Positions 1 through 35,824 of a DNA stretch of 35,824 nucleotides are shown here, one piece after another. Source of the DNA: a virus; the IMG/VR virus record IMGVR_UViG_3300029957_000024, positions 1-35,824 of that record. One strand, 5' to 3'. Under the pieces are notes generated by a model. The model had not been told where the DNA came from. It worked only from the letters and a program-made list of their open reading frames with translations, and searched no databases. Made by a program: the position numbers and the translations under genes. Each line of letters opens with the position of its first letter. The stretch's first letter is position 1.

Positions 1-125
1 GTGGTGGTGGGGGTGGGCGCCCACCGGGTCACGTCGCCGGCCAGGACCGCCGCCTGGTGGCCTGCGATCGCGGCGTGCGCGCGAGGGATCCGGCGGGGTG
101 CGGGCCGGTCGGTCACCCAGGTCAC
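1..125 (-). CDS. Hypothetical protein, 5' part (duplicate of 35373-35753)
   Basis: This is the N-terminal 41 codons of the gene that is complete at 35373-35753, cut by the window edge. The GTG start at 125 overlaps the stop of the upstream gene (ends 122) as GTGA, the same arrangement as at 35753. It is not an extra gene, only the redundant end of the assembly. Confidence 0.85.
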   Translation of the reverse strand, partial: MTWVTDRPAPRRIPRAHAAIAGHQAAVLAGDVTRWAPTPTT

Positions 126-196
126 TCGGTCACCGCCGCGGGGGTGCGCAGGTCGGCGTCATCCGGGTGCACGCGGCCGATCGCCGTGCGCCACGG
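1..196. repeat. Terminal direct repeat, left copy
   Basis: Positions 1-196 match 35629-35824 with a single mismatch (G at 128, A at 35756). The repeat spans the end of one gene and the start of the next, so it is not an isolated functional element. It most simply reflects a circular or concatemeric genome opened at an arbitrary point by assembly. The mismatch is synonymous (Thr codon ACC versus ACT on the minus strand). Confidence 0.95.
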
Positions 197-3418: not shown

Positions 3419-3703
3419 TCAGCGCTCGGCGTCGATCGTGCCCGCCTGAGTGACCTGCGTGGACAGGGCGCTGACGGACGCCTGCAGCGCCGTCACGTCC
3501 ACGCCCGGGTTGGCGGCGACCAGGGCGTCCAGGTCGGCCTGGATGCCCGTCAGGGAGGCGGTGAGCCCCGTGGTGAGGTCGGTGACCTGGGTGGTCAGAG
3601 CGTCGATGTCGGCCTGAGTGGCCATGTGATTGATCCTTTCGTTGATGGTCTTCAGCGCCGCCATGATGGCGTCGCCGTGGTCGTCGATGATGATGATGCG
3701 CAT
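3419..3703 (-). CDS. Coiled-coil phage protein, 94 aa
   Basis: ATG at 3703 overlaps the papain-like gene stop as TGATG. A second in-frame ATG at 3625 has AAAGGA 8 nt upstream and would give 68 aa. The longer form begins MRIIIIDDHGDAIMAALKTI. The rest (ADIDALTTQVTDLTTGLTAS, then IQADLDALVAAN and ALQASVSALSTQV) is a heptad-like coiled coil of low complexity. It is the last gene of the late operon, right before the terminator. It may be a virion or lysis accessory trimer; function unknown. Confidence 0.7.
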   Translation of the reverse strand: MRIIIIDDHGDAIMAALKTINERINHMATQADIDALTTQVTDLTTGLTASLTGIQADLDALVAANPGVDVTALQASVSALSTQVTQAGTIDAER

Positions 3704-4407
3704 CAGCCCGCCGCCGGCCGCAGCACCGTCGCGTCGCCGCCCGCACGCAGTAGCGCGTCGAGGTCGGTGAACCGGATCCGGCACGTGCCCGGCGTGGTGA
3801 TCCCGCACTCCGGTGCCGGAATCCCCCACCCGGTTCCCCACGAGTTCGGGACCACGACGAGTTCCCGCTCGACGTCGACGCCGCACAGCTCCAGCTCGTG
3901 GCCGCCCTCGTCGGGGCCGTCGATCGACAGGATCCCCGTGACCGGGGCCGGGTCGAACATCGGCTTTCGCCACGGGACGCCGACGATGATCGGGCCGACG
4001 ACGAGCGCGCCGAGGACGTGGTCGATCCCGAACGCGTGGGAGTAGCCGGCGATGAGCCCGAGACGCTTCGCGGCCTTCGCCGCCGCCAACCCCGACGAGC
4101 CGGTGTCCTGCGGGGGGTACGCGCCCGGGTAGGGGTCGTGGTGCGTCGCCCACGAGTAGAGCGCGATGGCGTCGGCGTTGCCCAGGAGCCGGCGGCCCGC
4201 GTGCTCGATCGGTTCGGTGTTCATCGCCCCGGCGGTCGCGAACCCGGTGCACGCGCCGAGCTGGCCCTGGTCGAGGATCGGCCCGAGCCGCTTGTGCCAC
4301 GTGGTCTTGAGCGGCGCGGTGGCGGCCTGGAATCCCCAAGAGGCGGGGTCGTGCCAGACGGTCCGGCCCAGCCCGTACAGCGTGCCCTCATGCTCGACGA
4401 CGGTCAC
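3703..4407 (-). CDS. Papain-like (C1-type) cysteine peptidase, 234 aa
   Basis: GTG at 4407 overlaps the upstream stop as GTGA. The sequence ILDQGQLGACTGFATAGAMN carries the papain-family signature: oxyanion-hole Gln47 and nucleophile Cys53. GGHELELCGVD gives His170, and VVVPNSWGTGWG gives Asn188 in the classic NSWGxxWG motif. All four catalytic residues of clan CA peptidases are therefore present in the right order. No signal peptide or propeptide is apparent. It lies directly downstream of the endolysin and small membrane proteins in the late operon, so I infer a role at lysis or in the virion, for instance cleaving cell-wall peptides or host/phage proteins. The substrate is unknown. The family assignment is strong, the role is not. 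Confidence 0.85.
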   Translation of the reverse strand: MTVVEHEGTLYGLGRTVWHDPASWGFQAATAPLKTTWHKRLGPILDQGQLGACTGFATAGAMNTEPIEHAGRRLLGNADAIALYSWATHHDPYPGAYPPQDTGSSGLAAAKAAKRLGLIAGYSHAFGIDHVLGALVVGPIIVGVPWRKPMFDPAPVTGILSIDGPDEGGHELELCGVDVERELVVVPNSWGTGWGIPAPECGITTPGTCRIRFTDLDALLRAGGDATVLRPAAG

Positions 4408-4592
4408 TTCAGGACCTCCCGTGCGGTCAACGGACCGCGGATCGTGTTGGGGACGGCGTACACGCCGGCCGCCGTCAGCGCGGCCAGGAAGATCGCCGCC
4501 CACTTGTCGTATGGCGCGGGGATGATCCCGGCCGCCACAGCCTGCGCGAGCAGGCCAGCGGCAGCGACGAGGCCCTTCCGGTACCTGCCCAT
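4404..4592 (-). CDS. Small membrane protein, probable holin, 62 aa
   Basis: ATG at 4592 overlaps the previous stop as TGATG. The product starts MGRYRKGLVAAAGLLAQAVA and has two hydrophobic helices (about residues 8-24 and 32-48) ending in the AALTAAGVYAVPNT motif that I recall in small holin-like proteins next to actinophage endolysins. Basic N-terminus, two membrane helices and the lysis-cassette position support holin function; no direct proof. Confidence 0.65.
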   Translation of the reverse strand: MGRYRKGLVAAAGLLAQAVAAGIIPAPYDKWAAIFLAALTAAGVYAVPNTIRGPLTAREVLK

Positions 4593-4744
4593 CACAGGCC
4601 AGCCTTCAACGCGGGGAGGGCGTAGGCGAGCAGGGCGCAAGCCGCCGCCAGGCACACCCAGGACACCCGCGACGGGACCCCGAACGCCGCGAGCACGAGC
4701 AGGATCACCGCCACCAGGAACAGCACCGCGGTCACGAGAGGCAT
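4592..4744 (-). CDS. Small membrane protein, 50 aa (holin/antiholin candidate)
   Basis: ATG at 4744 shares its A with the TAA of the upstream gene (TAATG), and GAAGGAGG lies 7 nt upstream. The product is MPLVTAVLFLVAVILLVLAA, FGVPSRVSWV, CLAAACALLAYALPALKAGL. It has two transmembrane helices joined by a short turn. Codon use (GC-rich third positions), the strong ribosome-binding site and overlaps on both sides make it convincing despite its size. It may act with the neighbouring 62-aa protein as a holin pair. Confidence 0.75.
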   Translation of the reverse strand: MPLVTAVLFLVAVILLVLAAFGVPSRVSWVCLAAACALLAYALPALKAGL

Positions 4745-5166
4745 TACGCGTCCTCCTTCGCCTTGAGCAGACCACGCATGTGGTCGTCGATGTGCTGGTC
4801 GAGGCGCTCCGCGACATGGTTGAGACGTTCCACGGTGCGGCCAGCGGAGTCGATCTGCTGCCGCTGCGCCTCCTCCATCCGGGCCTGCGCCGCCTCAGAG
4901 CGTGCCTGACCCGCGAGGATCGCCTTCAGGTCGGACGTCGTGGAGCCGGCGAAGCCATTGCCGGTCGGCCGTGCGAGGTCGGCCGCCTCGGCGGCCTTCT
5001 CCTTCGCCTCAACGGCAGCGGCCTTCGCCTCCACCGCGGTGGCGACCTGGACCACCTTGGCGGCCTCGTCGCGGCGGCGCGTCGCCCGATCCCGGCGGAT
5101 CATCTCGATGAGGACGACGACTGCGCCGCCAGGTCCAAGGATCACCGCGAGGGCATCCCAGCTCAT
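4744..5166 (-). CDS. Membrane-anchored coiled-coil protein, 140 aa (DUF2746-like)
   Basis: ATG at 5166 with AGGGAG upstream. One N-terminal transmembrane helix (WDALAVILGPGGAVVVLIEM) is followed by a basic stretch (RRDRATRRRDEAAK), a long Ala/Glu/Lys-rich coiled coil (about residues 35-65), and a C-terminal amphipathic segment (VERLNHVAERLDQHIDDHMR). This layout is like the DUF2746-type proteins beside actinophage lysins. It could be a holin partner or spanin-like element; the role is inferred from position only. Confidence 0.7.
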   Translation of the reverse strand: MSWDALAVILGPGGAVVVLIEMIRRDRATRRRDEAAKVVQVATAVEAKAAAVEAKEKAAEAADLARPTGNGFAGSTTSDLKAILAGQARSEAAQARMEEAQRQQIDSAGRTVERLNHVAERLDQHIDDHMRGLLKAKEDA

Positions 5167-5221: not shown

Positions 5222-6166
5222 TCAGGCGCCGTGCAGTACCGTGCGCACCGCCTGCTCAGCGGCCGCCTCGACCTGCGCTGCGGTCAGGGTGCCGGCCGGA
5301 GAGCTCGGCAGGTCCGCAGCGACAGCGGCGGCGAGCGGGCCCGCCAGGGCGGTGGTGAGCGCGGCGACGTCGACGGTGGCGAGCCGGCCGAGCATGGTCG
5401 AGCCGACACCGGGAAGCGCCGCCGGGTCCTGGCCGGTGAGCTTGCACCAGTACGGGGCCTCCCCTGCCGGGATCGGGATGACCTGGCTGCCGGCGATAAC
5501 GACGACGTTCGTAGCGGACTGCGCGGCAACAATCATGTCCGTGTCTCCCTTGGTGATCGTGATCGGGTCAATGGAACGGTGCTGGAACCATCCGTGCGCG
5601 AGCATCTGGTCGAGAGTGCCCCGGAACGCCGACGCGTCGAGGTTCGCGTGCCCGGGGATGGCGATCCGGGACCCGTACTGCCAGAGGTCTTCGCCGATCC
5701 ACTGCGGGTTGCTGTCGCCGCCGTGCGCGGCGTACACCCCGGTGATGGTGCCGGCCGGGTTGGAGAGGTAGTCGGCGCGCCACCACCCGCCGTAGCCCGC
5801 CTCGGGCTTGGCCCCGAAGTAGATCCCGGCGAGGGTCTGGCCGAGGGCCCGCAGCCGGTCGGCGATGGCGTAGGCGTCATCGCGGGTCGCGCCCGCCTCG
5901 GTGTCCAGCCAGATCGGGATCGGGGGCGGGTCGACGCGGTGAATGTTCGCGGCCTGCGCGTCGTAGTTCCCCGGGTGCACGAAGTGGTAGCTGGCGACGG
6001 GGAAGTTCAGGGCCAGCGCCTCATCGACCCAGCCCGCGAAGTAAGGGTTGACGTACCCGCCGGCCTCCGTGCACTTCACGATCACTGCGGAGTATCCGGC
6101 CGCCTGCAGGTCGGCGATCCGCAGACCCGCCTGATACGAAGAGATGTCAGCGACGAAGACGGTCAC
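5222..6166 (-). CDS. GH25-type muramidase endolysin, 314 aa
   Basis: GTG at 6166 is preceded by GGAGG. The N-terminal domain (about residues 1-195) reads as a glycoside hydrolase family 25 lysozyme: VADISSYQ (Asp7), VIVKCTEAGGY (Glu34), PIWLDTEAG (Asp88, Glu90) and EDLWQYGSRIAIPG. It would cleave the MurNAc-GlcNAc bond of peptidoglycan. After residue 210 a second module starts (MIVAAQSATNVVVIAGSQVI), followed by an Ala-rich helical tail (VDVAALTTALAGPLAAAVAA). No signal peptide, so release depends on a holin; membrane-protein candidates follow directly downstream. An internal ribosome-binding site and ATG at 5536 may allow separate synthesis of the C-terminal 104 residues. Confidence 0.88.
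   Translation of the reverse strand: MTVFVADISSYQAGLRIADLQAAGYSAVIVKCTEAGGYVNPYFAGWVDEALALNFPVASYHFVHPGNYDAQAANIHRVDPPPIPIWLDTEAGATRDDAYAIADRLRALGQTLAGIYFGAKPEAGYGGWWRADYLSNPAGTITGVYAAHGGDSNPQWIGEDLWQYGSRIAIPGHANLDASAFRGTLDQMLAHGWFQHRSIDPITITKGDTDMIVAAQSATNVVVIAGSQVIPIPAGEAPYWCKLTGQDPAALPGVGSTMLGRLATVDVAALTTALAGPLAAAVAADLPSSPAGTLTAAQVEAAAEQAVRTVLHGA
5534..5549 (-). promoter_or_regulatory. Internal ribosome-binding site and ATG in the endolysin
   Basis: On the minus strand AAGGGAG lies 8 nt before an in-frame ATG at 5536. Translation from here would give the 104-residue C-terminal part of the endolysin alone (5222-5536), starting MIVAAQSATNVVV. The start coincides with the visible boundary between the GH25 domain and the second module. 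Internal starts giving free wall-binding subunits are known in some endolysins of Gram-positive phages. Confidence 0.5.
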
Positions 6167-6281: not shown

Positions 6282-8006
6282 TCAGGCGGCCAGGAAGCGG
6301 CCGGCAATCTGGTCGGCGACATAGAGGCCGAGTTGGTCATGGCCCTCCTGGGACAGGTGCGTGCCATCGCTTGACACGATCACGTCACAGTTGCCTACGC
6401 CCGTGGTCGTACCGACCTTGCCGGTGCCGGTCCAGAAGTTCGCCCCCACCGCCGTGACGGCCGCCCCTGACGCATGGGTGGCGCTCAGGGCCGCGTTCAG
6501 GGTGTACGTGTAGGGGCCGACACCGGAAATGTTCGTGACGATGCGCCGCTCCCGCGCGGCCCCGGTGTCGATCTCGACGGTGGAGCGGATCGGGGTGAAT
6601 ACGGCGGCCACACTCACGGTGGTGGCGCCGCTGCTGGCCTGCGCGGACAGGGTCGTGGATCCAGCATTGTCGGTAGGGCCGGTGAGGAACGGGATAAACG
6701 GCAACCCTGCCACGACCGCGGCGGTCTGGAGCGCGGCGTCGGTGTCGAGGACCGCCGTAGTGACTGCTTCGACACCGGAATTCCACAGCACGCCCAGGAC
6801 GATCTGGCGTGTGCTCGGGAGCGCGGCGGCGACCTGCGCGAAGCATGCGGCCGCGGCGGCCTGGACGGCAGCGGCGGACGAAGCCGTATCGTTGTGGCCG
6901 CCTTCCCAGATCACCAGATCGGGTGCATAGGCGATCACATCCGCGGCGACACGGTCCCCGAACTTGACCGTCCCCCCGCCGCCCGGGTTGATGTACCCGG
7001 TCCCACCGATCCCCGAGGACCACACGTCGGGCCAGCCCAACGCAGAGGCCATCTTGCGGACCCAGTTCGTCACGCCGTACCCATTCGACCCTGTGCCAGC
7101 GGTGTAGGAGTCGCCCATGACGATCACTCGGGGGCCGCGCACCTCCGGCGCCCACACGCTGTCGGTGGGTCCGGTCATGACCCCACCGAACACGCCCGTA
7201 GAGTCCAGCCTGATCCGATGCTGACCCCTGGCGGCGAAGGTGACGGGCAGGAAGTAGACGCTGCCGGTGTTGCCCACACTGGTCGCGGCCGACGCGACAA
7301 GCTCACCGTCGACCCACAGCCGGTAAAAACTCGTGATTCCCTTGAACAGCAGTTCGAGCGCACCCGCACCGGAGTACTCAAACTCATATCCGATGCTCGG
7401 CATCTTCGTGTCGTTGGTGGCCCCGGTGATGCTGTTCGAGGTCACATAGAGGCTATTGGGGCTGCTCGTGCCGTAGGGGGCGATGGCCGCGCCCTGCGTG
7501 TAGGCGAAATACCTGCTGGTCTGCAAGGCGGTCGATCCGCCGGACTCGCCGACCGGCTTCCATGCGATGGCCGAGACGATCGCGGTCGCGGTCGCCAGCG
7601 CGCCAACCGTAGGCGGGGATGCCATCACGACATCCACCTGACTGCGCCTCGGCAGGGTCCGACGCGTTCCGAACTTCGCCGCCGGGAGGGGTGCATAGGT
7701 GCCCGGAAGGGCGGCAGCGACCGCGGCGGCCGAGCCGGCAGGGTCATAGTCCGGTGCGCCCGCCGGTGGCGCGGCCGGGGTGCTCACCGGCGTCGGGTCC
7801 ACGGTGACCACTGCGGTGCCCACGCCGGTCGTCGCCGTCAGCGCGATCCCCGCCGTGACGAGCACCTGCGTGGCCTGCCCAGGCCCGACCTTCGCACCGG
7901 ACGACAACGTCACGAACCCGGGCCCAGTGTTGGAGATGTTCATCAGCCGGGTGGACGCCGCGGCATCCAGGGTGGTCGGGCTCGTCGTGACGGTCACGCT
8001 GGCCAT
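6282..8006 (-). CDS. Tail protein with SGNH/GDSL hydrolase domain, 574 aa
   Basis: ATG at 8006 with AAAGGA 8 nt upstream. Residues 1-75 form a small beta domain (MASVTVTTSPTTLDAAASTR), then an Ala-rich linker and a beta-rich region to about 290. The SGNH domain follows: VIVMGDSYTAG (nucleophile Ser300), SSGIGGTGYINPG (block II Gly), WEGGHNDTAS (block III, Asn372) and SSDGTHLSQEGH (Asp547, His550). A beta-type insertion at about 447-522 (TTLSAQASSGATTVSVAAVF) separates blocks III and V. SGNH enzymes are esterases or deacetylases; on a phage tail the likely target is an acylated cell-surface polysaccharide. As the last tail gene before lysis it is probably a receptor-binding or depolymerising tail-tip protein. 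All catalytic blocks are present. Confidence 0.85.
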   Translation of the reverse strand: MASVTVTTSPTTLDAAASTRLMNISNTGPGFVTLSSGAKVGPGQATQVLVTAGIALTATTGVGTAVVTVDPTPVSTPAAPPAGAPDYDPAGSAAAVAAALPGTYAPLPAAKFGTRRTLPRRSQVDVVMASPPTVGALATATAIVSAIAWKPVGESGGSTALQTSRYFAYTQGAAIAPYGTSSPNSLYVTSNSITGATNDTKMPSIGYEFEYSGAGALELLFKGITSFYRLWVDGELVASAATSVGNTGSVYFLPVTFAARGQHRIRLDSTGVFGGVMTGPTDSVWAPEVRGPRVIVMGDSYTAGTGSNGYGVTNWVRKMASALGWPDVWSSGIGGTGYINPGGGGTVKFGDRVAADVIAYAPDLVIWEGGHNDTASSAAAVQAAAAACFAQVAAALPSTRQIVLGVLWNSGVEAVTTAVLDTDAALQTAAVVAGLPFIPFLTGPTDNAGSTTLSAQASSGATTVSVAAVFTPIRSTVEIDTGAARERRIVTNISGVGPYTYTLNAALSATHASGAAVTAVGANFWTGTGKVGTTTGVGNCDVIVSSDGTHLSQEGHDQLGLYVADQIAGRFLAA

Positions 8007-8055: not shown

Positions 8056-9081
8056 TTAGAGCATCCCGGCCTGCAGGGGCGACGATTGGCGCGTTGACCG
8101 TTGCACCGCCGTGTAGGCGTGGCCGTCGAGTCCGCCCTGGCGTTGCACCTGAAACAGGGGCGGCGCCAGCCCTTCACGCAGATACCGGTACCGCGGCATC
8201 TGTCCGAGGATCCGCACTCGCGGGATGTAGGGGCCGGAAGTCGGATATTGGGTGATCGTCGCTGTTGTAGACCATTCGGCCCGTGGTTCCCCAAGCCATG
8301 GAGGGCCCACCCCGCTGAGGAGGTAGGAGTCCCATGCCGCGAATTGCAGCCAGTCGCGACCAACGAACTCAGGAGCCGACCCGACCCCAACGGATTGAAA
8401 GTCGGTGTTGTAGTCGCTCCCAGGGGCCTGATCGGTGTCCAGGTTCACGGTCCCGGAAAGGACCGACGTGAACCCTGGCAATCCGATATCTCCCACACCG
8501 CCAATGCCCTCCCATCCCGCTACCCCTCCGCTCGCGTTGTAGGGGATGGTGGCCAGCGCGGGTGGGGCCGCCACGTCGTAGGTGAACGCTCCAATATGCG
8601 CCGCGGTGACCCAGTCCATCCGGTAGCCGAAGTACCAGTCGACGCTGCCCAAGGCGCCCGGGGACCCGTGCCGTCCGCCACCAATGTCGAGGTGGACGTT
8701 GTCCAACCGCAGCGGCCCTGCCGGCTCACCGTGCGGCGACTCCCATTCCAGGATGAACCCTGATGGCGGGGAGGGGACCATCGTGTCATTCACGGCCATG
8801 ATCTGCTCGCGGATGTATTTCAGGCTGACGCCCCACTCGGATGCTGATCCTTCCGGGTTGTTCGACGCCGGAAGATTCACTAGCCATTGCAGGTATGTCG
8901 GGAAACTTCCCCATGGGAGATCTGAGGGTGGCATTGACCAATGCCCTGGGTAGGCGTTCAGGGGAGCCGTCGTGGTGACGTCCGTGAACGCGGCGGCCGA
9001 CGCCCCCCATAAGAACTGCGACGCGAACGCATTGTCATCGACCGGGAAGTCGATGACCGGGCCCGTCGTCCAGTCACTCAT
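8056..9081 (-). CDS. Minor tail protein, unknown family, 341 aa
   Basis: ATG at 9081 overlaps the stop of the large hub gene as ATGA. Starts MSDWTTGPVIDFPVDDNAFA and is rich in Gly, Pro and aromatic residues (SMPPSDLPWGSFPTYLQWLV, VDWYFGYRMDWVTAAHIGAF), like a beta-structured virion protein. No enzyme motif or transmembrane segment. Position between hub and SGNH tail protein makes a tail-tip component likely; the exact role is unknown. Confidence 0.7.
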   Translation of the reverse strand: MSDWTTGPVIDFPVDDNAFASQFLWGASAAAFTDVTTTAPLNAYPGHWSMPPSDLPWGSFPTYLQWLVNLPASNNPEGSASEWGVSLKYIREQIMAVNDTMVPSPPSGFILEWESPHGEPAGPLRLDNVHLDIGGGRHGSPGALGSVDWYFGYRMDWVTAAHIGAFTYDVAAPPALATIPYNASGGVAGWEGIGGVGDIGLPGFTSVLSGTVNLDTDQAPGSDYNTDFQSVGVGSAPEFVGRDWLQFAAWDSYLLSGVGPPWLGEPRAEWSTTATITQYPTSGPYIPRVRILGQMPRYRYLREGLAPPLFQVQRQGGLDGHAYTAVQRSTRQSSPLQAGML

Positions 9082-12000
9082 ATACTCACCGGAGCCGGAA
9101 CCATCCGCCCGTTAATCCGGGTGCTGTTCGGCGAGAAGAACGCCAGCCACAGCCACGGTGGCCGCACCGACCGGTACTGGAAGCCGGCCGTGCTGCGCAA
9201 TTTCCCCGTCAGCGGCGTGCTTCCGCCAGTGAATGGGGACGTCTGGTAGCCGCGGTCGTAGCCGGCCGCCTGCCCGGGCCCGCCGATCGCCTCGATGAAC
9301 CCGGCGGTGAGCAGGTTGTCGTAGTCCCAGTCGAACGGCCCGTAGCCGTCCCCGCGGTCGACCAGCGGGTTCGCACCCACGTGCGACACCATGAAATTTG
9401 CGGTCACCGCGTCGCCGAAGAACGCCACGACGAACGGCGACGCCGGACCGTGCGTGGTCAGCTCCATCTCGGCGACCGTCCCCTGCTGCGACACCGGAAT
9501 GTGAATCACCGACCACAGGCCACCGAACAGCGCGAAGTCCGGGACCTTCCCGGCCGGCGACTCGGAGTCGAAGTCGACGACCGCGTCACGGGAGAGCACG
9601 GACCGGCGGTACTTCCGGGCCGGCATCCGCGCCGGGTCACTGGCTGCGGCGGCGTCCCGGGTCAGGATCCCCGCCAGGGTGATCAGGTCCCGGCCCCGCT
9701 CATCCACGGTCAGGCGGACCGTCATGCCGGACACCTGGACGTGCGCGATGTGCACGAGGACGTCGGCGCCCTGGAACCCCAACACCTTGATGTTGTGGCC
9801 CTCGCGGACGTCGAACCGGGAACCTTCCCGCGGGTCACCGGTCAGGATGATCTCCCCGGCCAGCCCGGGCGTCGCATTCCGCGCGAACTCGGCCGCAGCG
9901 GAGCGGACCGCTTGCGCCTTGGAGATGCCGGCGCCCATGTCCTCGTCGCGGTCGACGACCAGCAGCGTCGGATCCCACCCGCTGTTGGCGCCAGCATCGG
10001 ACCCGTCGGCCTGGTACAGCCGCGGCATGGTGGCGGCGTTGTACGCCAGCGGCATCCGGAATGCGCCGTCCAGGGAACCGCCGTTCGCGCCGACGTTGAA
10101 GCTGGCCGCCCACGTCTGCGGGCCCACCACGCCGTCGATGGTGATGCCGTAGGCCTTCTGGACGATCCGGCAGGCCGCGGCGTCCTGGGAGCTGTAGGCG
10201 CCGTCGATGGCGACCTTGGCGCCGGGGATGCCGAGGCTGTCGACGCGCTTCTGCCAGTCGCTGACACCGGTCCCTGACGTGGTTAACCCGTCGGTGGTGC
10301 CGATCGTCATCACGGTCGACGGCGACCCGAACGGGTAGGCGGGCGCGTTGTCGGGGCTGTAGTTCGGGTACTTCCAGTTCCCCCATGCGTAGCCGTTGAC
10401 ATCGACGCCGGACGCGTAGATCCGGTTCGGCGCCGACCGGGGGTCACGGGCGAGACTGACCTGCGCGCCGGGCTGCCCGAACCGGACAGTCCAGTTGACA
10501 GTGGACATGTCCTTGAGCCGCAGCTGATACGCCCGGCTCGAGGCGGTCCGCCCGATCGTCCACTGCGATGACCCGTCGTCCGTCGTCATGGTGGCCAGCA
10601 GCTGCTGGCAGAACGAAATCGGGGTGTCGGTGGAGGCGCCGCGGGCGCTGGTCGTGACCCCGGTCGTCACCCGAGAGATCGAGTTGACTCGCCGGTTCAC
10701 GATGGCGTTCAGGGTGTCCGGGACGACTGTGCCGCAGTCGGTTTCGGCCCGGTACAGCGGCGGCTTGTGGGTCTGGGTGTCGCCGGCCCACAAGTCGCCG
10801 ATGAGCTCGCAGGTCACCTTCCGGGACCGCTGGTCAATCACGACGCCGTTCGCGGAGATCTCCCCGGACCACAGGATTGTGGTTGTGGTGCCGTCCGGGT
10901 GAAGCCGGACGACGTCGACGGCCTTCCCGGCGACCAGCCATGACGGGGCGGCCTGGTAGGGGGAGGCGAGCAGCGCGGTCAGGGTGCCGGGTCCGCAGCC
11001 GAACGGTTCGGCCAGCTCGTAGTCGACGGTGATCGTCGGCATTCCGTTGTCGGCGTTGAAGTAGGTGCGGTCGGTGCCGTCGATGACGATCCGCCGCCAG
11101 CCCCAGTCTTCCTCGGTGACGGAGGCGTAATCCCAGGGCTGGACGGGCAGGCCGCGGCTGTCGAGGGTGGCGGCGTTGTAGACCCTGGACGCCCGGCGGA
11201 TCGGCTGATGCAGGGCCGGCGATGTCCCGGGCTGGTAGGCGGGGTCGAACGTCCCGGGGAGGCTCGGTGCGGGGGTGGCCGGGAAGGTGGCCGGCAGGAT
11301 GGTCATGGATCCCTCGGCGCCGAGGCTGCCAGCGGCGACGACAGCGACGCGCGTGGACCCTCGGACGCCGAGGCTCCCAGCGCCGATCTCGGCCTGCCGT
11401 GCGACCCCCTGGAATCCAAGGCTGCCTGTGGCGGCGATGGCCGCGCCAGACTGGTAGTGGGCGAGCACCCGGGCGGCCGACAACGCCGCCCCATAGATTG
11501 CGATCTTCTCCAGCTTGCCGGCCCACGACCAGCCGGCGCTGGCGATGCGCCCTAGGTAAAGGGTGTCGGTAACTGTGGTCGTGTTCATGCTTCCGGACGC
11601 GGCAGTGATCCCGGCCTGCGATCCGTTGATGAACACCCGCACATTGGTGCCGTCGAACGTGAACGCGACGTGGTACACGGTGTTGATGTTGATCGCGCCG
11701 GTCGCGGATGTGGCCGTGAACGCGGTGGTGCCGATGAAGATGATGGCGGTGAGGGCGCCGGTCGTCTCGACCCTGAACTGGTAGCGCCGGTTGTTGCTGC
11801 CGCCGCCCGGGTCCTGGCTGGCAATGGCGATGCCGTGCGACAGGGATGTGGGCCGGATCCATGCATCGGCGCTGTAGGTGGTGGCGTTCTGCCATGACGC
11901 CTGGGCGACGGTCGCCCACTGTGTGGACCCGTCGAAGGTGACCGCGGTGTCGGTGGTATCGCGCGGCATGATGCCGGTCGCGGCGAGCGTCGGCGTCCCC

Positions 12001-12119
12001 ACGTAGCTGCCGGAGTGGGATCCGCCACCGGAGTCCTGGACCGTCGTCCCGGACGGGTCCGACAGCTTCCAGTAGGCGAGAGGGCTGTCGGCGGCAACCG
12101 CGGTGTCGTACGCGGACAT
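9078..12119 (-). CDS. Large tail hub/adhesin with LamG and PG-binding domains, 1013 aa
   Basis: ATG at 12119. Residues about 1-228 form a LamG/concanavalin A-like lectin domain (SPLAYWKLSDPSGT, VTFDGSTQWATV, YHVAFTFDGTNVRVFINGSQ, GKLEKIAIYGAALSAARVLA). A linker has three GSLGxxG repeats (GSLGFQG, GSLGVRG, GSLGAEG). From about residue 300 a tail-hub-like body begins (PWDYASVTEEDWGWRRIVID, DGTDRTYF). At about residues 617-676 lies a PG_binding_1-like unit (GVSDWQKRVDSLGI, VAIDGAYSSQDA, YGITIDGVVGPQTW). The rest resembles a baseplate/hub protein, ending in a beta-rich domain. I infer that it sits at the tail tip, touches surface glycans through LamG and docks on peptidoglycan through the PG-binding unit. 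Confidence 0.8.
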   Translation of the reverse strand: MSAYDTAVAADSPLAYWKLSDPSGTTVQDSGGGSHSGSYVGTPTLAATGIMPRDTTDTAVTFDGSTQWATVAQASWQNATTYSADAWIRPTSLSHGIAIASQDPGGGSNNRRYQFRVETTGALTAIIFIGTTAFTATSATGAININTVYHVAFTFDGTNVRVFINGSQAGITAASGSMNTTTVTDTLYLGRIASAGWSWAGKLEKIAIYGAALSAARVLAHYQSGAAIAATGSLGFQGVARQAEIGAGSLGVRGSTRVAVVAAGSLGAEGSMTILPATFPATPAPSLPGTFDPAYQPGTSPALHQPIRRASRVYNAATLDSRGLPVQPWDYASVTEEDWGWRRIVIDGTDRTYFNADNGMPTITVDYELAEPFGCGPGTLTALLASPYQAAPSWLVAGKAVDVVRLHPDGTTTTILWSGEISANGVVIDQRSRKVTCELIGDLWAGDTQTHKPPLYRAETDCGTVVPDTLNAIVNRRVNSISRVTTGVTTSARGASTDTPISFCQQLLATMTTDDGSSQWTIGRTASSRAYQLRLKDMSTVNWTVRFGQPGAQVSLARDPRSAPNRIYASGVDVNGYAWGNWKYPNYSPDNAPAYPFGSPSTVMTIGTTDGLTTSGTGVSDWQKRVDSLGIPGAKVAIDGAYSSQDAAACRIVQKAYGITIDGVVGPQTWAASFNVGANGGSLDGAFRMPLAYNAATMPRLYQADGSDAGANSGWDPTLLVVDRDEDMGAGISKAQAVRSAAAEFARNATPGLAGEIILTGDPREGSRFDVREGHNIKVLGFQGADVLVHIAHVQVSGMTVRLTVDERGRDLITLAGILTRDAAAASDPARMPARKYRRSVLSRDAVVDFDSESPAGKVPDFALFGGLWSVIHIPVSQQGTVAEMELTTHGPASPFVVAFFGDAVTANFMVSHVGANPLVDRGDGYGPFDWDYDNLLTAGFIEAIGGPGQAAGYDRGYQTSPFTGGSTPLTGKLRSTAGFQYRSVRPPWLWLAFFSPNSTRINGRMVPAPVSI

Positions 12120-35376: not shown

Positions 35377-35753
35377 GACGTGACCTCGCTCATGGCGTCG
35401 TCGATCTCCGCGCACAGGAACGCTGCGGCCTCGGCCGGCCCGGGCTCGTCGTCGAACATGTCGGCCAGGGGCAGCGCCTGCGTCTCCGGCAGCACCTCGC
35501 CGACGACCAGCTGGTGCGGGAACGGCTCCCCCGCGGGCCACGCGGGGTAGCCGAGCTTGGCGCACACCTCGACGTAGATCGGTTCGGCCTCGAAGGGGGC
35601 GCCGGCCGGGACCGGGCCGTCCAGGGCCGTGGTGGTGGGGGTGGGCGCCCACCGGGTCACGTCGCCGGCCAGGACCGCCGCCTGGTGGCCTGCGATCGCG
35701 GCGTGCGCGCGAGGGATCCGGCGGGGTGCGGGCCGGTCGGTCACCCAGGTCAC
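35373..35753 (-). CDS. Hypothetical protein, 126 aa
   Basis: GTG at 35753 overlaps the stop of the DUF7666-like gene when the ends are joined (GTGA at 35750-35753), showing the gene chain crosses the junction. MTWVTDRPAPRRIPRAHAAI, then FEAEPIYVEVCAKLGYPAWP and an acidic end (ADMFDDEPGPAEAAAFLCAE). No motif. The 5' part is repeated at 1-125. Confidence 0.75.
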   Translation of the reverse strand: MTWVTDRPAPRRIPRAHAAIAGHQAAVLAGDVTRWAPTPTTTALDGPVPAGAPFEAEPIYVEVCAKLGYPAWPAGEPFPHQLVVGEVLPETQALPLADMFDDEPGPAEAAAFLCAEIDDAMSEVTS

Positions 35754-35824
35754 TCAGTCACCGCCGCGGGGGTGCGCAGGTCGGCGTCATCCGGGTGCAC
35801 GCGGCCGATCGCCGTGCGCCACGG
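35629..35824. repeat. Terminal direct repeat, right copy
   Basis: Right copy of the 196-base end repeat. The only difference from the left copy is A at 35756 instead of G at 128. It holds the complete start region of the gene ending at 35373, which is cut by the window edge in the left copy. Confidence 0.95.

What the first reader, a model, noticed from the sequence alone, without database searches (positions are those of the whole stretch)
3703..4407. Papain-like cysteine peptidase in the lysis cassette
All four catalytic positions of C1-type peptidases are visible (Gln47, Cys53, His170, Asn188, with NSWGTGWG), and the gene is translationally coupled to holin-like genes just after a GH25 endolysin. 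Phage lysis normally uses glycosidases, amidases and NlpC/P60 or CHAP peptidases; a papain-type enzyme here is unusual. It has no signal or propeptide. It could cleave wall peptides, wall-anchored or division proteins, or be packaged in the virion.
Basis: partly seen in the sequence, partly recalled or inferred. Interest (0 to 1): 0.62.

Follow-up and report, generated by a model that had tools for sequence, protein, structure and literature searches.

The report
Papain-type protease in actinophage lysis genes
The gene is a genuine papain-type protease sitting among the cell-bursting genes of a virus of actinobacteria; the same arrangement recurs in many related viruses and is already annotated in databases, but nobody appears to have tested what the enzyme cuts.

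Summary
Gln47, Cys53 and His170 are kept in 100 of 100 representative relatives, and Asn188 in 97 (Gln in 3). The AlphaFold model (pLDDT 90) has the canonical papain fold; the closest solved structure is the bacterial enzyme xylellain (Z 20.9, 203 residues, 2.6 A). It is the fourth gene after a GH25 endolysin, in a chain with three small membrane proteins.

The gene is not unusual. It belongs to PHROG 16701 ("peptidase"; SEA-PHAGES "cysteine protease"). At least 54 phage records and 150 viral contigs carry relatives. In 67 of 100 representatives a lysis gene lies within four genes (an endolysin, or in one case only a holin), next to several unrelated endolysin types. Gordonia phage GMA2's homologue was listed as a putative lysin in 2015, and xylellain-type C1A peptidases in tailed phages were reported in 2023.

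Most likely it is an accessory lysis-stage endopeptidase released by the holin. Whether it cuts envelope proteins or peptidoglycan peptides is untested; I lean slightly to proteins. It is a new member of a known kind. The conserved but unstudied lysis association is the interesting part.

The parts
3703..4407 (-). xylellain-type C1A (papain-family) cysteine peptidase, 234 aa, GTG start; Q47, C53, H170, N188
5222..6166 (-). GH25 endolysin (314 aa), first gene of the lysis cassette
   Evidence: Pfam PF01183 2.4e-12; PHROG 3084 endolysin 2.1e-22
4744..5166 (-). 140-aa protein with one N-terminal hydrophobic stretch and a long charged Ala-rich, probably helical region; accessory membrane or holin-like
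   Evidence: hydropathy; no confident family
4592..4744 (-). 50-aa protein of two hydrophobic stretches, candidate holin; overlaps its neighbours by 1 nt on each side
4404..4592 (-). 62-aa membrane protein, candidate holin; stop overlaps the peptidase start by 4 nt (GTGA); same small-protein cluster flanks the peptidase in six other loci
   Evidence: PHROG 17495 membrane protein 1.7e-4; cluster 9; overlap
3419..3703 (-). 94-aa predicted helical protein of unknown function, starts 1 nt inside the peptidase stop

Best explanation
It is a xylellain-type C1A (papain-family) cysteine endopeptidase that serves as an accessory enzyme of the lysis stage. SHOWN by sequence or model: complete catalytic set, canonical papain fold, selection to keep the protein, a coupled position in the lysis cassette, and recurrence of that position across many actinophages. 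INFERRED: it is made late in the cytoplasm without a signal peptide, leaves through the holin lesions together with the endolysin, and cleaves peptide bonds in the envelope, so that the cell opens more completely or virions come free. Its substrate is unknown. I slightly favour proteins (wall- or membrane-attached) over peptidoglycan peptides, because the C1A cleft is built for ordinary L-peptides, the core residues are constant across phages of hosts with different wall chemistry, and some cassettes already hold a peptidoglycan peptidase (C39 or M23).
For: Fold and catalytic residues. 67 of 100 representatives have a recognisable endolysin (in one, only a holin) within four genes, next to GH25, Amidase_2, DUF1906-like, C39-plus-amidase or M23 enzymes. 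Host-genome copies show the same order, tail - peptidase - endolysin - holin, in prophages, including strongly diverged ZL12-like members. The gene after the peptidase starts within 5 nt of its stop in 46 of 69 loci. dN/dS 0.04-0.49 in close pairs. GMA2 Orf38 had already been placed among lysin genes.
Against: No experiment. The loci were sampled with a profile made from lysis-cassette members, and they are related to one another, so the 67 of 100 is not an unbiased rate. A minority sits elsewhere: a basal clade (Thonko, DrLupo, BillNye, GX15bay, XacN1) and copies next to terminase or tRNA genes. There is no recognisable wall-binding domain. Lysis genes lie next to tail genes and integration regions, a common insertion spot for optional genes.
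Confidence: 0.58

Rival explanations
1. Sub-case of the best explanation: it is in effect a second endolysin, an endopeptidase that cuts the stem or cross-bridge peptides of peptidoglycan, complementing a muramidase or amidase that lacks peptidase activity.
For: Most adjacent endolysins are GH25 or amidases without a peptidase domain. Mycobacteriophage Lysin A enzymes carry papain-superfamily (N4/N5, C39-like) peptidase domains. Foldseek on viral models lists Lysin A and peptidoglycan-binding proteins among weaker matches.
Against: In GMA2, Sixama, Mareelih, Cafasso and Lilbeanie two lysin genes with other domains (C39 peptidase, amidase or glycosidase) are already present, and Mufasa8 has a metallo-endopeptidase. 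The papain-superfamily classification read here places peptidoglycan enzymes in the NlpC/P60-CHAP-amidase cluster. No wall-binding domain.
Confidence: 0.25
2. It acts inside the cell before lysis, processing phage proteins (holin, endolysin, virion precursors) or degrading host proteins.
For: No signal peptide; a cysteine peptidase would be active in the reducing cytoplasm. Relatives in the early or tRNA regions of other phages work, if they do, without lysis neighbours.
Against: Does not by itself explain repeated adjacency to endolysin and holin of different families.
Confidence: 0.17
3. It is a virion component (tail-associated protease used at entry), placed at the end of the tail module.
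For: In many loci the order is tail genes - peptidase - endolysin.
Against: In the window, L001, L034, L041, Mufasa8 and the Gordonia phages it lies after or within the lysis genes. No fusion to a tail protein seen. Copies exist far from tail genes.
Confidence: 0.1
4. It is an optional passenger gene that happens to settle at the tail/lysis boundary and has no part in lysis.
For: Patchy distribution (18 of 298 Streptomycetaceae genomes). The context label changes 17 times on the tree, at least 8 times on well-supported branches.
Against: Purifying selection; overlapping starts; conserved context even in members as diverged as the ZL12 group.
Confidence: 0.15

Closest known systems
PHROG 16701 'peptidase' / SEA-PHAGES 'cysteine protease' (Gordonia phages GMA2, Sixama, Forza, Cafasso; Arthrobacter phage Mufasa8)
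   Same: Same family over the full length (PHROG E=1.5e-44; 41-48% identity over 92-97% of the protein), same position among holin and endolysin genes
   Different: The window protein has a 9-residue insertion with two cysteines (C201, C209) near the C-terminus and lacks the Pro-rich C-terminal tail seen in many Streptomyces-type relatives
Xylellain (Xylella fastidiosa C1A peptidase, PDB 3ois)
   Same: Best solved structure: Z 20.9, 2.6 A over 203 residues, 22% identity; shares DQG.xGSCT and the GGH motif
   Different: Enzyme of a cellular bacterium; low sequence identity; no lysis context known to me
Papain, cathepsins (C1A)
   Same: Fold and Gln-Cys-His-Asn set (Z about 17)
   Different: Those are secreted zymogens with full propeptides; here there is only a short N-terminal arm
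Lysin A peptidase domains of mycobacteriophages (N4 NlpC-like, N5 C39-like)
   Same: Papain-superfamily cysteine peptidases used in lysis
   Different: Other families (C40, C39), fused to or paired with other endolysin domains; no Pfam C39, CHAP or NlpC match here

Membership tests
Peptidase family C1A, xylellain-type (PF00112) | Catalytic Gln-Cys-His-Asn in papain order and spacing | tested here: met
   Q47/C53/H170/N188; Q, C, H in 100 of 100 and N in 97 (Q in 3) of aligned members
Peptidase family C1A, xylellain-type (PF00112) | Papain fold without circular permutation | tested here: met
   AF2 pLDDT 90; aligned end to end with xylellain (9-233) and papain (32-232)
Peptidase family C1A, xylellain-type (PF00112) | Match to the Pfam Peptidase_C1 model above its cut-off | tested here: inconclusive
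   18.9 bits against a cut-off of 20.7 for this protein; 51 of 65 family members match at E <= 0.01, best 3.1e-9
Peptidase family C1A, xylellain-type (PF00112) | Peptidase activity, E-64 sensitive | not testable with these tools
   needs purified protein
PHROG 16701 (phage peptidase) | Full-length profile match | tested here: met
   1.5e-44, residues 13-229 to 5-229 of 234
CHAP (C51), NlpC/P60 (C40) or C39 endolysin domain | Match to those Pfam models | tested here: not met
   only Peptidase_C1 and Peptidase_C1_2 found among P0001 and 65 aligned members
Phage endolysin | Cleaves peptidoglycan | not testable with these tools
   no assay possible
Phage endolysin | Encoded in the lysis cassette with holin | tested here: met
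   GH25 and small membrane genes in one closely spaced or overlapping chain; recurrent in relatives; holin identity of the small genes is inferred

The most novel reading that the evidence does not exclude
A dedicated proteolytic step is part of actinophage lysis: a papain-type protease, released by the holin, removes a protein barrier of the actinobacterial envelope, a step distinct from peptidoglycan hydrolysis (endolysin) and mycolate hydrolysis (LysB).
Probability: 0.25. Interest if true: 0.72.

Novelty: new member of a known kind. Interest (0 to 1): 0.36.

Why it matters
The gene itself is a known phage family. What could matter is the recurrent, apparently unstudied pairing of a true C1A papain-type protease with actinophage holins and endolysins of several unrelated types. 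Known lysis enzymes of Gram-positive phages attack glycan, peptidoglycan peptides or mycolates; a protease aimed at envelope proteins would be an added lysis step, and a C53A mutant in an existing laboratory Gordonia or Streptomyces phage would test it directly.

Tried and rejected
Plus-strand reading of the interval: no gene. PF00112 search of the window's own genome at E<=0.001: no match, because this member scores just under the usual threshold. NCBIfam: no match. Distant alignment A1 was too diverse to drive contig scans. I asked whether the Pro-rich, helix-ending C-terminal tail of many relatives also occurs on endolysins or tail proteins: found only on the peptidases. Alignment of the small upstream gene with the gene upstream in Gordonia phages: not convincingly homologous. 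Literature searches for papain-type proteases in phage lysis gave the 2015 GMA2 note, a C1A evolution paper and BetterKatz (cysteine protease-like endolysin gp29, family not checked), but no functional study. Viral structure matches to Lysin A and a peptidoglycan-binding protein could reflect C39-type domains and were not followed up.

Full report
WHAT IS THERE. The interval 3703-4407 is coding on the minus strand only: a 234-aa protein from a GTG start. Q47, C53, H170 and N188 are as described. PHROG 16701 ('peptidase') matches nearly end to end at 1.5e-44. Pfam Peptidase_C1 falls just short for this one sequence (18.9 against 20.7 bits) but is found in 51 of 65 aligned members, and no CHAP, NlpC/P60 or C39 model is. 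An AlphaFold model from 65 aligned sequences has pLDDT 90 and pTM 0.88. Its best solved match is xylellain (3ois: Z 20.9, 203 residues, 2.6 A), then Der p 1, cathepsins and papain at Z about 17 to 18. The profile alignment with xylellain shares DQG.xGSCT and the GGH motif around the catalytic His. Across 100 representative members Q, C and H are invariant; Asn is Gln in three. Gly143, Trp146 and Gly168-Gly169 are invariant as well. Close pairs show dN/dS of 0.04-0.49, so the enzyme is kept by selection.

SMALL CORRECTIONS. There is no signal peptide or long prodomain, but residues 11-31 form a conserved arm (LGRxVxHDPRSRxY) ahead of the position where mature papain starts. Parts of it are modelled with low confidence, so whether it covers the cleft is open. 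The window protein alone among those aligned has a 9-residue insertion carrying two cysteines.

THE CASSETTE. Transcription runs from right to left: GH25 endolysin 6166-5222, a 140-aa protein with one hydrophobic stretch, a 50-aa protein with two, a 62-aa membrane protein, the peptidase, and a 94-aa predicted helical protein. From 4744 downward the genes overlap by 1, 1, 4 and 1 nt. The 62-aa neighbour belongs to a small cluster that sits immediately beside the peptidase, on either side, in six other loci. Calling these small proteins holins is inference from size, hydropathy and place; only a weak PHROG 'membrane protein' match supports it.

HOW COMMON. tblastn finds the family in 54 phage records, mostly of Mycobacterium, Gordonia and Streptomyces; a scan of IMG/VR found 150 related contigs. 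In Arthrobacter phage Mufasa8 and Gordonia phages Mareelih, Sixama, Cafasso, GMA2 and Lilbeanie the gene lies inside the annotated lysis cassette, usually overlapping the gene before it. L001, the closest relative (58% identity in the contig scan), has amidase - small membrane protein - peptidase with a 4-nt overlap. Of 100 representatives, 67 have a recognisable endolysin (one of them only a holin) within four genes. In the IMG/VR-derived set the endolysin is GH25, Amidase_2, DUF1906-like or LysM-amidase, downstream in 31 loci and upstream in 11. In Streptomycetaceae, 18 of 298 genomes carry the gene; of 14 regions inspected, 12 show phage genes around it, usually tail - peptidase - endolysin - holin, including strongly diverged ZL12-like members. 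Chance would place an endolysin within four genes in perhaps a tenth to a fifth of cases for a phage of 60-80 genes (my estimate). Caveats: the contigs were found with a profile of lysis-cassette members and are related, so the count is not an unbiased rate.

EXCEPTIONS. A basal clade (Thonko, DrLupo, BillNye, GX15bay, XacN1 and two Streptomyces chromosomal copies) lies away from lysis genes, as do Shaeky (tRNA cluster) and several contigs next to terminase. On the tree the context label needs 17 changes, at least 8 on well-supported branches. So lysis adjacency is frequent and repeatedly kept or regained, but not universal.

WHAT IT PROBABLY DOES. The fold, catalytic set and position are shown. 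Everything after that is inference: late synthesis in the cytoplasm, exit through holin lesions, and cleavage of peptide bonds in the envelope. For a protein substrate: C1A enzymes are general L-peptide proteases (general knowledge); the core is constant in phages of hosts with different wall peptides; and several cassettes already contain a peptidoglycan peptidase (C39 or M23). For a peptidoglycan substrate: most neighbouring endolysins are muramidases or amidases that would gain from a peptidase, and papain-superfamily domains occur in mycobacteriophage Lysin A. I keep both open and lean slightly to proteins.

NOVELTY. The family is annotated (PHROG 16701; SEA-PHAGES 'cysteine protease'). 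GMA2 Orf38 was listed in 2015 as one of four putative lysin genes on the strength of a cd02619 motif (PMC4524720). Xylellain-type C1A peptidases acquired by Siphoviridae and Myoviridae were reported in 2023 (PMC10380794). BetterKatz has a 'cysteine protease-like' endolysin gene in its cassette, whose family I did not check (PMC4982276). I found no functional study. The finding is therefore a new member of a known kind, with an interesting and directly testable open question about its substrate.

Noticed in passing
window 1-127 and 35629-35755: The two ends of the record share a 127-bp exact direct repeat that stops about 70 bases short of the right end, so the contig is probably a complete, terminally overlapping genome of about 35.6 kb (70% G+C).
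   Followed up: partly
window 4407..3703, residues 196-209: The window's peptidase has a 9-residue insertion with two cysteines (C201, C209) that the 14 relatives aligned lack; a disulphide hairpin after export is conceivable.
   Followed up: no
L031, L042, L049, L062, L123 and many others, C-termini: About half of the relatives carry a Pro-rich linker and a short helix ending in KGL/KGV/KGY after the catalytic domain; a profile of this tail found it on no protein other than the peptidases.
   Followed up: partly
window 6282-8006 (minus strand): A GDSL-type lipase/esterase domain in a large protein between the tail genes and the endolysin, possibly a tail-associated envelope esterase (Pfam 1.1e-13).
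   Followed up: no
window 9078-12119 (minus strand): 1013-aa probable tail protein with a laminin-G-like domain and a peptidoglycan-binding domain.
   Followed up: no
L019, L020, L037, L055, L059, L065, L074: In these contigs the peptidase lies close to probable terminase or other DNA-packaging genes rather than an endolysin, several behind a tiny one-helix protein of 33-52 aa.
   Followed up: partly
L131, L136: Two Streptomyces chromosomal copies without visible phage neighbours group with the BillNye/GX15bay clade, hinting at an element or cellular branch outside the lysis context.
   Followed up: no
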